From contig JACPYP010000016.1 of assembly GCA_016195985.1 (NCBI GenBank), positions 124,001 to 188,000 on the forward strand: a DNA stretch of 64,000 nucleotides. Direction: 5' to 3'. This document shows, one piece after another, positions 11,055 through 17,219 of this stretch. Position 1 is the first letter of the stretch; the number at the start of each line of letters is the position of its first letter. Origin of the DNA: Acidobacteriota bacterium (GTDB lineage Bacteria; Acidobacteriota; Holophagae; Holophagales; Holophagaceae). The notes beneath the pieces are model-generated. The model saw only the letters and a list, made by a program, of their open reading frames with translations, was not told the DNA's origin and ran no database searches. A program made the position numbers and the translations under genes.

Positions 11055-11492
11055 CTATTCCACCGGCACCGTAGCAAGGATGGTGACTGCGCTCACGCCC
11101 TTATGCTTGTAATACACGTTGATGACGTTGTGGGTGCTTCCATTGATATCGAGGGCAGTCGTGGCCTTCAGGCCAACTTGACCATCTGTGGGAGCGGAGG
11201 TGTTGATCAGGGCCGTAGATGTGTTCGTGTAGGCGTTCTTGCAGTTTGGGTACTTGAAATTATTGATAGACGTTGAGATATAGGTGATGACACGAGCTGT
11301 GCTGGCATTGTTCATCAGTTTGGCCGCGCCTGTGATCTCTGAAACCACGGCCTGGGCAGTCGCTTCTGTGGCCTTTTGCTTGGCCTTGTCGCGCTGCCCG
11401 AGCAAAGCGGGGATCGCGATGGCGGAAATGATGCCAATGATGGCAAGCACGAGCAACAGCTCGATCAGGGTGAATCCGGATTGACGTTTCAT
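11055..11492 (-). CDS. Type IV pilin-like protein (second PilA)
   Basis: A 145-residue prepilin with leader MKRQSG, cleavage site G6/F7 and helix FTLIELLLVLAIIGIISAIA, with Glu at +5. The first 35 mature residues are nearly identical to those of the pilin at 13578-14036 but the C-terminal domains differ. The globular part is rich in Thr, Ser and Asn, suitable for surface exposure or glycosylation (inference). Two Cys are absent except C87-region NCKN. It has its own sigma-54-like promoter at 11538-11553 and shares the bidirectional terminator with pilA. Base composition is clearly more AT-rich than in the pilBTC genes. Confidence 0.9.
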   Translation of the reverse strand: MKRQSGFTLIELLLVLAIIGIISAIAIPALLGQRDKAKQKATEATAQAVVSEITGAAKLMNNASTARVITYISTSINNFKYPNCKNAYTNTSTALINTSAPTDGQVGLKATTALDINGSTHNVINVYYKHKGVSAVTILATVPVE

Positions 11493-11537: not shown

Positions 11538-11553
11538 TGCAAAATGCGTGTCA
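11538..11553 (-). promoter_or_regulatory. Sigma-54-like promoter of the second pilin gene
   Basis: On the minus strand the sequence is TGACACGCATTTTGCA, a perfect TTGCA -12 element and a -24 element with one mismatch (GG to GA), at exact consensus spacing. It overlaps the stop codon of the upstream enzyme gene by three bases. The ribosome site GGAGG lies about 30 bases downstream, before the ATG at 11492. Confidence 0.65.
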
Positions 11554-13509
11554 TTTCCCGTCTAGCCATGGGCCTGCTTTTTTTGCATGGTAATCCTTTA
11601 AGATGGATTCAATCGAGGCAGCTGAAATTTCCTCTGGATTGCCATTAATGGCGTAACCTGCATACGAAACTTTTAGGTACTTACCGTCCCCAATCGGGTT
11701 CAGAGTGATGGTTTGGTCCGGGAGAATGTACGCCCAAGAAAGGTCCTTTACTGTCCGAAAATCCTGGGGGGTGTCCATGAACCACAACCCGGAAAAGCTA
11801 AGATAAGTATTGTTAATATAATCTTTAGGTTTAATTCCGGCTCCTTCTATTCCGCCCTGCTCTCGGGTCTCCTTGGATTGTGTGTGTACGGCTTGCACGG
11901 TTGGAAAAGAAATCAGCCAACCGACCGAACCAGTCCGAGTCAATTGCAGTTGATCATTCCCCTGTACCCACCTTCCCAGATCATCCCGTAAGTCCAACCA
12001 TGAATAAATATCATTGGAATTCAGATTGGCTTTTGTTTGCCCAAATGGGTGTAGGGGTACTTTCAATGTTTCCGGCGTCAATGTGAATCCATGGATGCCG
12101 GTCAAATAGGACACAAGTGTGCCCTCAGGCGTTATCACTGGGACGAACTCTTCACCATGATCTGAGGTAACTACACCAGATAGCTTAGGGTATTTAACTT
12201 CCCATTGTTTGAGCATGGGATCGAGATCCTTGAGAATCCTCGTGGCGCGGATCCTATAGTGATTAATGGGATTTGCTCTGCCGCCTTGTCTATGGAAGTG
12301 GTCCTGCTCTGCTTGCTCCATACCTTGATAGGGCTGGTAGGAGTAGGCCGTGTGAAAGAGCCAGCGCCAGGGCCGAAGTACCTGGATTTCGTCTCGTCGC
12401 AGAAAAAAGGGGGCGTGCATCTGGCATGTGTGGGCGCTTACCCACTGATGGTGCTCAAGCGCGCGGTCCACTTCTCTGAAAAAAGAACGATCATCGGACC
12501 AAGGGTTGGTGGTTTCGATATAACTTAAATAGTTTTCAACCCAACTATATACGGGCCAGCAACTACCCGCACCAACGGTAAAGAAATGCTTCCAACCTCC
12601 ACTGGGCTCATATACCTCATCGAAAGGCGTTTGAGTAAGTAAAAAACTGAGGGTGGTGGAGTCGTCGATCAAAAAAATGCTGTTGATTCCATTGGTTTTG
12701 GCTGCGTTCAGGAGGCCCGGTTTCTTGGGCGTCATGTATTCATCTTTGAATGGGATGACAAGATGGTATTTGAAAGAATCAGGATCCTCTCCCAGCAACA
12801 TGTTCCATGCGAGACGAGTTGCTGGAACCGCCACCACCGGTTGGCATCCGCCAGGGGCCTTCCAGTTCGGCATAGCGCTCTCGGTAAGATCCTGCCTCAG
12901 TCCATCAATCCCAATCACCAACAAGCGTCGCTCTTCGCTGGATACGTTTGCAGATCTGGGTGCCAAGCGCCGGAAAAAATCATGCGGCACGTGTAGCAGC
13001 AACAATATAGTCAATGCTGCGCCGACAAGCCTCCAAATGCTATTTATACGCGACTTAAATCCTTTCGCGCTTGCCCATATTCCACCCAGAAGAAGCAACG
13101 CAAGCACTAGTCCGATTGGGAGTCGATTTAGGCCTTGTACCGTCCCGAGGGTTCCTGGAACGTCTAGGAACAGGAGCCCATGAATCCATAGGAGGGATCC
13201 TAGTCCAACCCAAAGACCAGGCTTGAATCCAAGGAGTTGTTCCATGGAGGATTTAACGCCAACCCTTTGCCAAAGAAAGAAAATAAGCCCGCTCATTACA
13301 CCAACGGTTAGATAGGCAAGTAGAGCGAGTAAGGCCCACTCGGCCACGGCTTTCAGCATGACGCCGGAGTAGCTTAGGTTTGGAAGAAATGGATGGGGTG
13401 TTTTCCCGGCCATGATTAGGAAGCGAACTCCCAGGGTGATCCAGGCCATGAACCAGACAGAGAGAATGCCTACCAGCCAGGCCAGTCGTGCCAAAAGTCT
13501 CTGTCGCAT
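11551..13509 (-). CDS. Membrane protein with C-terminal sulfatase/alkaline-phosphatase-fold domain
   Basis: A 652-residue protein. About five hydrophobic segments lie within residues 1-175. The soluble part carries the metal-site pattern of the alkaline phosphatase superfamily: IGIDGLRQD (D202), a probable Thr nucleophile in VPATRLAW (T231), a His in QMHAPF (H365) and the SDHGEEF signature (D450, H451). Relatives include sulfatases and phosphoethanolamine or phosphoglycerol transferases that modify surface glycans and pilins; the exact reaction is unknown. The catalytic domain is predicted to face the periplasm. It lies between two pilin genes, follows a terminator, and has a run of ten G just upstream of its ATG. 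It is visibly lower in GC than its neighbours, suggesting acquisition. Confidence 0.85.
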   Translation of the reverse strand: MRQRLLARLAWLVGILSVWFMAWITLGVRFLIMAGKTPHPFLPNLSYSGVMLKAVAEWALLALLAYLTVGVMSGLIFFLWQRVGVKSSMEQLLGFKPGLWVGLGSLLWIHGLLFLDVPGTLGTVQGLNRLPIGLVLALLLLGGIWASAKGFKSRINSIWRLVGAALTILLLLHVPHDFFRRLAPRSANVSSEERRLLVIGIDGLRQDLTESAMPNWKAPGGCQPVVAVPATRLAWNMLLGEDPDSFKYHLVIPFKDEYMTPKKPGLLNAAKTNGINSIFLIDDSTTLSFLLTQTPFDEVYEPSGGWKHFFTVGAGSCWPVYSWVENYLSYIETTNPWSDDRSFFREVDRALEHHQWVSAHTCQMHAPFFLRRDEIQVLRPWRWLFHTAYSYQPYQGMEQAEQDHFHRQGGRANPINHYRIRATRILKDLDPMLKQWEVKYPKLSGVVTSDHGEEFVPVITPEGTLVSYLTGIHGFTLTPETLKVPLHPFGQTKANLNSNDIYSWLDLRDDLGRWVQGNDQLQLTRTGSVGWLISFPTVQAVHTQSKETREQGGIEGAGIKPKDYINNTYLSFSGLWFMDTPQDFRTVKDLSWAYILPDQTITLNPIGDGKYLKVSYAGYAINGNPEEISAASIESILKDYHAKKAGPWLDGK

Positions 13510-13513
13510 GCCA

Positions 13514-13531
13514 CCCCCCCCCCAAAAAAAA
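13514..13531 (-). repeat. Homopolymer tract G10 (with T8) abutting a start codon
   Basis: On the plus strand ten C (13514-13523) are followed by eight A (13524-13531). Read on the minus strand this is T8 then G10, then TGGC and the ATG of the membrane enzyme at 13509. The T8 doubles as the T-run of the upstream pilin terminator; the G10 occupies the ribosome-binding position. Long G tracts are classic slippage sites for phase variation, which is inferred here. Confidence 0.7.
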
Positions 13532-13554
13532 CGCCCCCAGCAGTGCGGGGGGCG
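13523..13554 (-). terminator. Rho-independent terminator of the third pilin gene
   Basis: On the minus strand a GC-only stem (CGCCCCC at 13532-13538 paired with 13548-13554) is followed by eight T. It lies 24 bases after the stop of the pilin at 13578-14036 and directly upstream of the membrane enzyme, so that enzyme may depend on read-through. Confidence 0.85.
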
Positions 13555-13577: not shown

Positions 13578-14036
13578 TTAATCGAGAGCAACGACCTTGG
13601 TGACCTTCGGCGTGGTGGTGCCATCCTTATAGGTAGCCGTTACGACCACTGCAGGGTAGGTTTTGCTGGTTGCCGGGTCAGAGTAGGTGCTGTTGGCCGT
13701 CAGATAAACCAATCCGAGAGTTGTGCCTGCGGCTGCAGCAGTATAGGGAGCCGTGCTTCCTCCATAGGGGTTCTTGGCGGCAGGAAAGTTATAATTGCTC
13801 AGCTTGAGGACGGCGGTAACCACCGCTGCGGCGGTCGGGGTGGTGCCAGTCTGGCGCAAATCATCATTTACGCGAGCCAACTCGCCGGCGATATTGGCGA
13901 CCATGCTCTGAGTGGCCTTGGCCTTGGCCTTCTCGCGCTGACCCAGAAGGGCCGGGATGGCGATGGCGGCAATGATACCGATGATTGCGAGCACGAGCAG
14001 CAGCTCGATGAGGGTGAAGCCGGATTGCTTCTTCAT
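13578..14036 (-). CDS. Type IV pilin-like protein (third PilA)
   Basis: A 152-residue prepilin with leader MKKQSG, cleavage site G6/F7 and helix FTLIELLLVLAIIGIIAAIA, with Glu at +5. The ATG at 14036 is preceded by AAGGAGA; the frame is open further upstream but that part does not resemble a leader. The mature C-terminal domain is rich in Thr, Ala and Tyr and lacks a Cys pair. It shares the N-terminal segment, including ALLGQREKAK, with the pilin at 11055-11492, so the two are probable duplicates with divergent heads. A sigma-54-like promoter lies upstream and a terminator downstream. Confidence 0.92.
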   Translation of the reverse strand: MKKQSGFTLIELLLVLAIIGIIAAIAIPALLGQREKAKAKATQSMVANIAGELARVNDDLRQTGTTPTAAAVVTAVLKLSNYNFPAAKNPYGGSTAPYTAAAAGTTLGLVYLTANSTYSDPATSKTYPAVVVTATYKDGTTTPKVTKVVALD

Positions 14037-14406
14037 GGGCGTCTCCTTGGGAATGGGCCGAGGCAGGAACATCAAGTCTCGTGCCAGATGGAATTCGAGT
14101 TCTAAGATGAACAACTCGGCTCTGAATGACAAGGGGTTTATCCGATTTGATGGTGGCTGCCTGGCCTGGATCGTTTGACTACTGACCCAACGCGGCGGAC
14201 AAGTGACGGGCAAGGGCAGGTTGGCCGAAGGGGCTTTCGTCACCCCTCGGAGGCCATTCGGTCGTTGGCCAGAATTTCCTTGGAATCAAATCCACCAATC
14301 CGACCCCTTGGTGAATCGGGAGATCCGGGCATGATTGATTTCGTTTTCGGGGCCGCGTCCGACTGACCCCCGAGTTGTTTTGCGTAGAATGTTGAAAGGG
14401 AAGGGT
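14037..14406. other. Gene-free divergent regulatory region
   Basis: The 370 bases separate the third pilin (minus) from the glycan cluster (plus). The minus strand holds the sigma-54-like site at 14071-14086. On the plus strand TAGAAT at 14385-14390 with CTGACC about 16 bases upstream is a weak sigma-70-like candidate for the aminotransferase gene. Space for upstream activator sites is ample, but I see no clear operator, RNA gene or reading frame. Confidence 0.6.
14071..14086 (-). promoter_or_regulatory. Sigma-54-like promoter of the third pilin gene
   Basis: On the minus strand TGGCACGAGACTTGAT has a perfect -24 element (TGGCACG) and correct spacing, with one mismatch in the -12 element (TTGAT for TTGCA). 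Transcription would begin near 14060, giving a short leader with the AAGGAGA ribosome site before ATG 14036. Confidence 0.6.
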
Positions 14407-15519
14407 ATGAGCCAGGGGAAGCCAATCTATGTCACCCAGCCCCATCTCCCCCCTTTGGAGGAATTCATTCCCTACCTGGAGGAGATCTGGGAGAGGAAAA
14501 TTCTGACCAACGGAGGGCCCTTCCACCAAAAACTGGAACGAGCCCTCTCCGAATACCTCGGGGTGGGCCACATCGCCCTGTTCACCAACGGCACGATTGC
14601 CTTGGTGACGGCATTGCAAGCCCTTCGGATCACTGGCGAGGTGATCACCACTCCTTACTCCTTCGTGGCCACGGCTCATTCCCTGCTGTGGAACGGGATC
14701 AAGCCGGTCTTTGTGGACGTGGACCCGAAGACGCTCAACCTCGATCCTTCCAAGATCGAGGCGGCGATCACGCCTCAGACCACGGCCATCATGCCGGTGC
14801 ATTGCTATGGCCACCCATGCGACGTGGAGGCCATCCAGAAGATCGCCGACAACTACAACCTTAAGATCGTCTACGATGCCGCACACGCGTTCGGCGTTCA
14901 GGACGCCAACGGGAGCATTCTCCGGTACGGAGACCTGTCCGTGTTGAGTTTCCACGCAACGAAGGTCTTCAACACTTTTGAAGGGGGTGCCATCGTTTGC
15001 CCTGACGAAAAGACCAAGATCCGGATTGACCATCTCAAGAATTTCGGCCACGTGGGCGAGGTTACCGTGGTCGCGCCGGGTATCAACGGAAAGATGAGTG
15101 AGTTCAACGCTGCTCTAGGACTGCTGCAACTCAAGCATATCGATCAGGCCATCGAGAACCGGAAGCGGATCGATGCTGCCTACCGGAAGAGGCTTGAACC
15201 GGTGAGGGGAATTCGTTGCCTGGGCGATGCAGGGGAACGGAGAGCCAACCATGCTTATTTCCCGATCATGGTGGAATCAGAATTTGCCATTAGCCGTGAT
15301 GCGCTCTACCAGAGGCTGAAGGATCACGGTATCCATCCTCGCAAGTATTTCTATCCCCTGATTTCAGAGTTCCCGATGTACCGCAGCCTGCTTTCGGCTC
15401 GGCCCGAGAATCTCCCAGTGGCTTCGGTCGCCTCTCAGCAAGTGCTGTGTTTGCCCATCTATGCTGACCTGGATGCTTCTGTGGTGGATAGGATTACCGA
15501 TCTCATTCTGGCGCCCTGA
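14407..15519 (+). CDS. DegT/DnrJ/EryC1-family PLP sugar aminotransferase
   Basis: A 370-residue enzyme of the family that transfers an amino group (usually from Glu) to keto-sugar nucleotides, making amino sugars for O-antigen or protein glycans. K186 in SFHATKVFN is the predicted PLP Schiff-base lysine, and D157 in VYDAAHAFG the ring-nitrogen contact; NFGHVG is the usual loop that follows. ATG 14407 follows AAAGGGA. It heads a tightly packed plus-strand cluster up to gtrA at 20770. The substrate cannot be told from sequence. Confidence 0.9.
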   Translation: MSQGKPIYVTQPHLPPLEEFIPYLEEIWERKILTNGGPFHQKLERALSEYLGVGHIALFTNGTIALVTALQALRITGEVITTPYSFVATAHSLLWNGIKPVFVDVDPKTLNLDPSKIEAAITPQTTAIMPVHCYGHPCDVEAIQKIADNYNLKIVYDAAHAFGVQDANGSILRYGDLSVLSFHATKVFNTFEGGAIVCPDEKTKIRIDHLKNFGHVGEVTVVAPGINGKMSEFNAALGLLQLKHIDQAIENRKRIDAAYRKRLEPVRGIRCLGDAGERRANHAYFPIMVESEFAISRDALYQRLKDHGIHPRKYFYPLISEFPMYRSLLSARPENLPVASVASQQVLCLPIYADLDASVVDRITDLILAP

Positions 15520-15554
15520 GCCATGTCTAGCCTCCCAATCGCTTCGGCGGGTCC

Positions 15555-16253
15555 ATGAGAACTGCGATCATGCAGCCTTATTTCCTGCCCTACATCGGCT
15601 ATTTCCAGCTAATCGCGGCGGTCGATTTGTTCATCGTGTACGACAACATCAAGTACACGAAGAAAGGCTGGATCAATCGGAATCGACTGCTGCGGAACGG
15701 AGCCGATTCCGTATTCTCCCTGCCCTTGAAAGCCGCTCCGGATCATCTGGATGTACGGGAACGGAGGCTGGCGGAGGGATTCCGCCCAGACAAGTTGCTT
15801 AACCAGTTCAAGGAGGCCTACCGTCGAGCGCCGTACTTCGATCAGGCTTTTCCCATGCTAGAGGAAATTCTCGGTTTTGGAGACCCCAACCTGTTTGCCT
15901 TCCTTCGCCATTCGATCCAAAAAACATGTGGATACTTGGGTATTGCTACTGAGATCCGGACCTCTTCGGACATTGGCATCGACCACGGGCTGAGGGGCCA
16001 GGAGAAAGTGATCGCCCTATGTGAGGCAGTGGGCGCAACGATCTACGTAAACCCCATTGGTGGGACGGAGCTCTACGGTCGAGAAGCTTTTCAGACGCGG
16101 GGGATCGATCTAAGGTTTCTCCGGGCGCTTCCGGGTGACTACGTGCAGTTCGAAAACGACTTCGTACCTTGGCTATCCATCATTGATTTGATGATGTTCA
16201 ATTCTGTAAATGATCTGAAAACTCGATGGCTCGTCCAATTTGAACTAACCTAG
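15555..16253 (+). CDS. WbqC-like family protein
   Basis: A 232-residue protein with the hallmark N-terminus IMQPYFLPYIGYFQLI, followed by YDNIKYTKKGWINRNR, which matches the WbqC-like family found in O-antigen and glycan clusters. Members often sit next to aminotransferases of the DegT type and are suspected acyl- or amino-acyl transferases on amino sugars, but the biochemical role is not firmly established. It lies 35 bases after the aminotransferase gene and three bases before the next gene, so it belongs to the same transcript. No membrane segment is visible. Confidence 0.88.
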   Translation: MRTAIMQPYFLPYIGYFQLIAAVDLFIVYDNIKYTKKGWINRNRLLRNGADSVFSLPLKAAPDHLDVRERRLAEGFRPDKLLNQFKEAYRRAPYFDQAFPMLEEILGFGDPNLFAFLRHSIQKTCGYLGIATEIRTSSDIGIDHGLRGQEKVIALCEAVGATIYVNPIGGTELYGREAFQTRGIDLRFLRALPGDYVQFENDFVPWLSIIDLMMFNSVNDLKTRWLVQFELT

Positions 16254-16256
16254 GCC

Positions 16257-17219
16257 ATGTTCGAATGGAAGAAGCTCGGAAAAATCTTCACTCCACAGGC
16301 AGTTCAGGGACCGGCTTGGCTGTCTGAATTCGCCCAGGCGCCTTCCAGCCTGCTGTTCGATGATTTCGTGCGGATCTACTTCTCCTGCCGTCCGCCAGCG
16401 GATGATCAGGGGCAATACGTCAGCCGGTCCGCCTTCGTTGATCTGGACCGCACCGACCTTCCAAAAGTGCGGGCCGTTGCTGCGGAACCGATTCTGGCCC
16501 TCGGTGGGCTGGGGGAGTTTGACGAATTCGGGACCTACCCGGTGTCCGTCATCCGCACAGGGGAAGATGTGCGGGCCTACTATGCGGGGTGGACCCGTTG
16601 CGAATCAGTGCCATTCAACGTGGCGATCGGCATGGCTGTTAGTCGCGACAATGGAAGGACATTCAAGAAGGTTGGCTCGGGGCCGATTCTGCCATATTCT
16701 CCAGACGAGCCATTCGTGATGAGCGGGCCGAAAGTCAGGATCTACGGTGGCGTTTGGTACCTCTGGTATATCGCCGGGCGGAAGTGGAAGGTCGTGGATG
16801 GTCGTGCCGAGCCGGTCTACAAGATCCGGATGGCGACCTCGGATGACGGGTTTCGCTGGGTGAAGCTGCACCGTGACCTCATTGAAAGCCGGGTGGAGGA
16901 GGACGAGGCCCAGGCCAGTCCTGACGTGATTTTCGCCAATGGGAAGTACCATATGTTCTTCTGCTACCGCCACAGTTGCCACTACCGGAGCAAGGAGAAG
17001 GGGTACCGCATCGGTTACGCGTCTAGCACGAACCTGCTCGATTGGGTAAGGGATGACACAAAGGCCGGCATTGATGTCTCTGAGCATGGTTGGGACTCAG
17101 AAATGATCAGCTATCCGCACGTCTTCGAGGTGGATGGCAGAACCTACCTGGCCTACCTCGGGAACCAGGTGGGCCGAGAGGGATTCGGCCTTGCTGAACT
17201 TCAGGGTTTGTTGGCGTAG
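16257..17219 (+). CDS. Five-bladed beta-propeller protein (GH43/GH32-like fold), copy 1
   Basis: A 320-residue protein with repeated aromatic beta-strand motifs (VRIYFSCRP, AYYAGWTR, VWYLWYIAG, KYHMFFCYRHS, GYRIGYASS, RTYLAYLGNQ) typical of five-bladed propellers of the GH43/GH32/GH130-like group. There is no signal peptide, so it is probably cytoplasmic and acts on a sugar or nucleotide-sugar intermediate (inference). The next gene is a clear paralogue. I cannot assign catalytic acids with confidence. Confidence 0.75.
   Translation: MFEWKKLGKIFTPQAVQGPAWLSEFAQAPSSLLFDDFVRIYFSCRPPADDQGQYVSRSAFVDLDRTDLPKVRAVAAEPILALGGLGEFDEFGTYPVSVIRTGEDVRAYYAGWTRCESVPFNVAIGMAVSRDNGRTFKKVGSGPILPYSPDEPFVMSGPKVRIYGGVWYLWYIAGRKWKVVDGRAEPVYKIRMATSDDGFRWVKLHRDLIESRVEEDEAQASPDVIFANGKYHMFFCYRHSCHYRSKEKGYRIGYASSTNLLDWVRDDTKAGIDVSEHGWDSEMISYPHVFEVDGRTYLAYLGNQVGREGFGLAELQGLLA

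What the first reader, a model, noticed from the sequence alone, without database searches (positions are those of the whole stretch)
13510..13531. G10 tract at the start codon of a surface-modification enzyme: candidate phase-variable switch
A run of ten G lies four bases before the ATG of the alkaline-phosphatase-fold membrane protein, exactly where the ribosome site should be, next to a T8 run that ends the upstream terminator. Homopolymers this long are rare in such a genome and slip readily. Slippage would change the spacing or the transcription read-through, switching the enzyme on or off beside variable pilin genes.
Basis: partly seen in the sequence, partly recalled or inferred. Interest (0 to 1): 0.65.

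Follow-up and report, generated by a model that had tools for sequence, protein, structure and literature searches.

The report
Poly-G ribosome site behind pilin terminator
In a bacterium of the genus Geothrix, the ribosome-binding site of a surface-enzyme gene has become a run of ten G's directly behind the transcription stop signal of a pilus gene; the gene layout is shared by its relatives but the G run is not, and nothing found shows that it acts as an on/off switch.

Summary
Observation confirmed: on the minus strand, TTTTTTTT (13531-13524), GGGGGGGGGG (13523-13514), TGGC and ATG (13509) follow one another. They are the longest T/A and G/C runs in the window; the genome has six G/C runs of 10 or more.

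Interpretation only partly supported. The tract is well placed to be the Shine-Dalgarno sequence of a 652-aa membrane protein with an alkaline-phosphatase fold. What is conserved is the layout: all 17 orthologous loci with a readable gap lie close behind a type IV pilin gene, with a hairpin (usually followed by T's) between, and several have the T run running straight into a short G-rich Shine-Dalgarno. G10 is not conserved (0-5 G elsewhere, including the 67%-identical nearest relative).

In silico, slippage of +/-1 should not switch the gene. A pure G tract offers 5-7 equivalent registers, so usable spacings survive. Anti-SD pairing is nearly saturated and folding changes smoothly. The reading frame is untouched, and no promoter uses the tract as a spacer. 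MutS and MutL are present. Length variation itself could not be tested (one assembly per species).

Most likely: a pilin operon whose second gene is expressed by terminator read-through from an overgrown Shine-Dalgarno.

The parts
14071..14086 (-). sigma-54-like -24/-12 element TGGCACGAGACTTGAT upstream of pilin 1: candidate promoter of the operon
   Evidence: Sequence; the same motif (TGG[CT]ACN5TTGA) upstream of the pilin in L002, L003, L004, L006, L008, L010. Consensus from general knowledge, not tested.
13578..14036 (-). type IV pilin-like gene (152 aa, N-terminal methylation motif)
   Evidence: Pfam PF07963, E 2.7e-10
13532..13554 (-). G+C-rich hairpin of the pilin terminator
   Evidence: terminator scan; fold; hairpin at the same place in all readable orthologues
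13524..13531 (-). T8 run, U-tract of the terminator
13514..13523 (-). G10 tract, inferred Shine-Dalgarno of the downstream gene
   Evidence: same position as GGAG (L002) and GGGG (L003, L010) in orthologues
13510..13513 (-). TGGC spacer between tract and ATG
11551..13509 (-). membrane protein with alkaline-phosphatase-superfamily domain (652 aa), likely phosphotransferase or hydrolase
   Evidence: AlphaFold model pLDDT 82, pTM 0.86; Foldseek best PbgA/YejM, MCR-1, sulfatases, also EptA; VIA Z about 20; invariant D202, T231, H360, D450, H451, H473 in 10 relatives
11055..11492 (-). second type IV pilin-like gene downstream (145 aa)
   Evidence: Pfam PF07963, E 1.2e-9

Best explanation
The tract is the Shine-Dalgarno sequence of the second gene in a conserved unit: pilin, terminator, membrane enzyme. 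Transcription probably starts upstream of pilin 1 (a sigma-54-like element is present). Most transcripts end in the T8 run right behind the pilin; a minority read through and carry the enzyme, whose ribosome site begins at the very next base. In this lineage the short G-rich site of relatives (GGAG, GGGG) has grown to G10, probably by slippage at the T-run/G-run junction. The expected effect is a low, pilin-coupled level of the enzyme, with at most modest tuning by tract length and no on/off switch. Shown: the anatomy, its conservation and the absence of the tract elsewhere. Inferred: read-through, the tract working as Shine-Dalgarno, the growth by slippage, and weak dependence on length.
For: Layout kept in 16 orthologous loci measured by script, gap 58-112 nt, hairpin in every gap, and in L014 by eye. 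T run running into a G-rich site in L002 (TTTCTTTGGAG), L003 (T7GGGG), L010 (T8GGGG). Anti-SD core GGATCACCTCCTTT present in six of seven Geothrix genomes searched. G5 to G12 all give a strong anti-SD duplex, -18.1/-18.7/-18.9 kcal/mol at G9/G10/G11. Terminator hairpin predicted unchanged from G4 to G15; pairing probability of the start codon drifts only between 0.60 and 0.44. No sigma-70-like promoter on this strand near the gene. Sigma-54-like element before the pilin in most orthologues.
Against: No transcript data: the enzyme may have its own promoter of a type not scanned for. The 16S 3' end was not found in this draft itself. Read-through is not measured. A single-base change in a G tract of an untranslated leader can alter translation (espR in Mycobacterium tuberculosis, PMC11898584), so modest tuning cannot be excluded.
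Confidence: 0.62

Rival explanations
1. Phase-variable contingency locus: the tract gains and loses G's at high frequency, and this switches or strongly modulates the enzyme, so that cells differ in a surface or pilus modification.
For: G10 is long enough to slip. It lies at the ribosome site of a surface-type enzyme next to pilins. Neisseria pptA, a pilin phosphorylcholine transferase, is phase-variable through a G tract (PMC3656113), and espR gives a precedent for a leader G tract. Contingency tracts are often species-specific.
Against: Tract absent from all orthologues. Register degeneracy and near-saturated pairing. No folding switch. Reading frame unaffected. MutS1 and MutL present. No genus-wide set of G10 tracts at starts of surface genes: almost all other G10-N2-8-ATG matches in 47 genomes do not precede a plausible gene.
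Confidence: 0.13
2. Neutral overgrowth: the tract slips and varies but has no effect, being a by-product of poly-T/poly-G slippage behind a terminator.
For: Another T8G9 stands behind a terminator-like hairpin in the same genome, with no ATG right after it (L056). T6G6 is commoner than the reversed G6T6 in the genus, 16 to 2, and T5G9 versus reversed is 7 to 0 in 60 genomes, which points to a sequence-driven process.
Against: It lies exactly where relatives have their Shine-Dalgarno, so some G-richness is needed there.
Confidence: 0.17
3. The exact length is an assembly or sequencing error; the true tract is shorter or longer.
For: Poly-G is error-prone, and draft relatives carry poly-G/poly-C stretches next to N gaps.
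Against: The tract lies inside a 470-kb contig with coherent flanks, both matching orthologues, and 18 bases are easily spanned by a short read.
Confidence: 0.08

Closest known systems
pptA of Neisseria meningitidis (phase-variable pilin phosphorylcholine transferase)
   Same: transferase that acts on pilin (membrane-bound alkaline-phosphatase type, from general knowledge), with a G tract
   Different: there the tract is inside the coding region and changes the frame (PMC3656113); here it is outside the frame, at the ribosome site, and pilin modification is not shown
espR 5'UTR 7G tract of Mycobacterium tuberculosis
   Same: G tract in an untranslated leader; a one-base change alters translation (PMC11898584)
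   Different: that tract begins 144 bp upstream and is thought to act by refolding the leader; here it is the ribosome site itself and no refolding is predicted
Neisseria porA homopolymer in the promoter spacer
   Same: homopolymer upstream of a surface-protein gene (paper cited in the reference list shown; details from general knowledge)
   Different: there length changes the -10/-35 spacing; no promoter spans the tract here
Fimbrial operons with a terminator behind the major subunit gene (papA-papH type; from general knowledge)
   Same: terminator inside an operon keeps later genes low relative to the subunit
   Different: downstream gene is an enzyme, and the ribosome site begins at the next base after the U-tract

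Membership tests
Phase-variable homopolymeric (contingency) locus | long homopolymer, rare for the genome | tested here: met
   G10, one of six G/C runs >=10 in 4.26 Mb
Phase-variable homopolymeric (contingency) locus | tract length varies within a culture or between isolates | not testable with these tools
   one assembly per species held, no reads
Phase-variable homopolymeric (contingency) locus | tract placed so that +/-1 changes frame or promoter spacing | tested here: not met
   outside the ORF, ATG is the first start codon of its frame; no promoter-like pair on this strand near the gene
Phase-variable homopolymeric (contingency) locus | tract length alters leader structure or ribosome binding | tested here: inconclusive
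   predictions show smooth, small changes; not measured
Alkaline phosphatase superfamily, membrane phosphotransferase type (EptA, LtaS, PptA, PbgA) | alkaline-phosphatase fold in the soluble domain | tested here: met
   Foldseek E 4.8e-10 to PbgA, 2e-8 to MCR-1; VIA Z 20.6, rmsd 3.9 over 292 residues to the YejM periplasmic domain
Alkaline phosphatase superfamily, membrane phosphotransferase type (EptA, LtaS, PptA, PbgA) | N-terminal membrane helices before the domain | tested here: met
   five long predicted helices within residues 2-172, hydrophobic by sequence
Alkaline phosphatase superfamily, membrane phosphotransferase type (EptA, LtaS, PptA, PbgA) | metal and nucleophile residues (Asp, Thr, Asp-His, His) | tested here: met
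   D202, T231, D450, H451, H473 invariant in ten relatives; roles assigned by analogy
Alkaline phosphatase superfamily, membrane phosphotransferase type (EptA, LtaS, PptA, PbgA) | sequence match to a Pfam/NCBIfam model of the family | tested here: inconclusive
   window protein matches none; two of ten aligned members match Sulfatase PF00884, best E 2.2e-5
Pilin phosphotransferase (PptA-like) | modifies pilin | not testable with these tools
   only gene neighbourhood: pilin directly upstream in 17 loci
Intrinsic terminator | G+C-rich hairpin followed by a T run | tested here: met
   13554-13532 then T8

The most novel reading that the evidence does not exclude
A slippage-prone all-G Shine-Dalgarno fused to a leaky pilin terminator works as a graded rheostat: changes in T-run and G-run length together set read-through and translation of a pilin-modifying enzyme, giving cell-to-cell variation in pilus chemistry in an environmental bacterium.
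Probability: 0.08. Interest if true: 0.65.

Novelty: new member of a known kind. Interest (0 to 1): 0.27.

Why it matters
If the switch were real, it would be phase variation of a pilus-linked enzyme in an environmental Acidobacteriota genus, for which no paper in the searched library mentions phase variation together with Geothrix. As it stands, the useful result is the conserved unit: a pilin gene, a terminator, and a divergent membrane enzyme of the alkaline-phosphatase superfamily, which no Pfam or NCBIfam model recognises in the window's protein. It makes a testable suggestion that Geothrix pili or nearby surface material carry a phosphate-type modification.

Tried and rejected
Enrichment of G8-N2-8-ATG in the genus (454 against 140 for the reversed control) looked like widespread poly-G ribosome sites. 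Reading 28 of the sites showed that only nine precede an open frame of >=100 aa and few of those look like real genes, so this is not used as evidence.

Genus-wide long G tracts as contingency loci: many in drafts lie by N gaps or contig ends, so they are set aside.

Frame effect: the ATG is the first start codon of its frame, so a length change does not alter the reading frame.

Promoter-spacer effect: no promoter-like pair on this strand near the gene.

RNA families: no Rfam match in the window.

Own 16S 3' end: not found in the draft; relatives used instead.

Naming the species: the scans of genome contigs returned named relatives (Geothrix oryzisoli, Geothrix rubra) but not the window's own record.

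Full report
Observation. The minus strand reads hairpin-TTTTTTTT-GGGGGGGGGG-TGGC-ATG, with T8 at 13531-13524, G10 at 13523-13514 and the ATG at 13509. They are the longest T/A and G/C runs in the window. Across the 4.26-Mb draft there are 16 G/C runs of nine or more and six of ten or more. Under independent bases about 65 runs of ten or more would be expected, so length alone beats no such null. Models with memory of two to five bases expect about 0.1 per 64 kb, and no T6+G8 junction arose in 40 simulations each.

Genus and neighbourhood. On the minus strand the order is pilin (14036-13578), terminator, G10, enzyme (13509-11551), second pilin (11492-11055). A sigma-54-like TGGCACGAGACTTGAT lies at 14086-14071, and the same kind of element precedes the pilin in most orthologues.

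The enzyme. Pfam and NCBIfam do not recognise the window's protein; two of the ten aligned members match Sulfatase, best E 2.2e-5. An AlphaFold model from ten sequences (pLDDT 82, pTM 0.86) has several long N-terminal helices and a soluble domain that matches PbgA/YejM, MCR-1, EptA and sulfatases. Asp202, Thr231, His360, Asp450-His451 and His473 are invariant, as expected of a working active site of this superfamily. The substrate is unknown; pilin is a guess from the neighbourhood.

What is conserved. Relatives of the enzyme were found in 20 of 100 genomes. In all 16 loci where pilin stop and enzyme start could be placed by script, and in L014 by eye, the enzyme follows a pilin gene closely (58-112 nt in the 16) with a stable hairpin in the gap. 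In several the U-tract runs directly into the ribosome site: TTTTCTTTGGAG in the nearest relative L002 (67% identical), T7GGGG in L003, T8GGGG in L010. The longest G run within 22 nt of the start is 0-5 in all others and 10 here. So the layout is old and the tract is new.

Would slippage switch the gene? A run of G pairs with the anti-SD core CCUCC in every register. From the fixed 3' edge (TGGC), G9, G10 and G11 offer spacings of 4-8, 4-9 and 4-10 nt, so a good spacing is always available. Calculated duplex energies are -18.1, -18.7 and -18.9 kcal/mol. Folding the leader with 4 to 15 G's leaves the terminator hairpin intact and shifts start-codon pairing only gradually. The tract is outside the reading frame and not in a promoter spacer. 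A change in the T8 run could shift termination a little, which would be a graded effect. MutS1 and MutL genes are present, which argues against a raised slippage rate without excluding it.

Is there a genus-wide system? G10-N2-8-ATG occurs in 15 of 47 Geothrix genomes, but read one by one the sites nearly all precede no plausible gene; the window's is the clear exception. An apparent excess of G8-N2-8-ATG (454 against 140) also proved mostly not to lie at gene starts. Long poly-G/poly-C stretches in several drafts sit at N gaps or contig ends.

Precedents. Neisseria pptA switches by a G tract inside the gene (PMC3656113). The espR leader of M. tuberculosis shows that one extra G in an untranslated leader can change translation, by a predicted refolding (PMC11898584). 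Neither geometry applies here.

Verdict. The best reading is an overgrown Shine-Dalgarno in a conserved pilin-terminator-enzyme unit; the phase-variation claim is possible but unsupported, and only reads or reporters can decide it.

Noticed in passing
G000:C30:182490-182504 (locus L112, about 1497-1511): G15 tract directly after a (TG) repeat, about 23 nt upstream of the ATG of a multi-spanning, flippase-like membrane protein (no Pfam match). A stronger contingency-locus candidate than the window's G10.
   Followed up: partly
Geothrix genomes; window 13514-13531; L056 about 1498-1514: T runs followed by G runs are commoner than the reverse: TTTTTTGGGGGG 16 against 2 in 47 genomes, TTTTTGGGGGGGGG 7 against 0 in 60. 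Some of the 16 lie behind terminator-like hairpins. Cause unknown.
   Followed up: partly
L092, L096, L101, L106 and similar loci in other Geothrix drafts: Long poly-G/poly-C stretches beside N gaps or contig ends or in patchwork stretches, probably assembly artefacts.
   Followed up: partly
window 14407-17219: DegT/DnrJ aminotransferase, WbqC-like protein and a weakly glycoside-hydrolase-like protein next to the pilins: a likely surface-glycan cluster.
   Followed up: no
L004 270-737 and 916-1383: Two pilin genes in tandem whose predicted proteins agree over at least their first 70 residues, upstream of the enzyme in a relative: apparent recent duplication.
   Followed up: no
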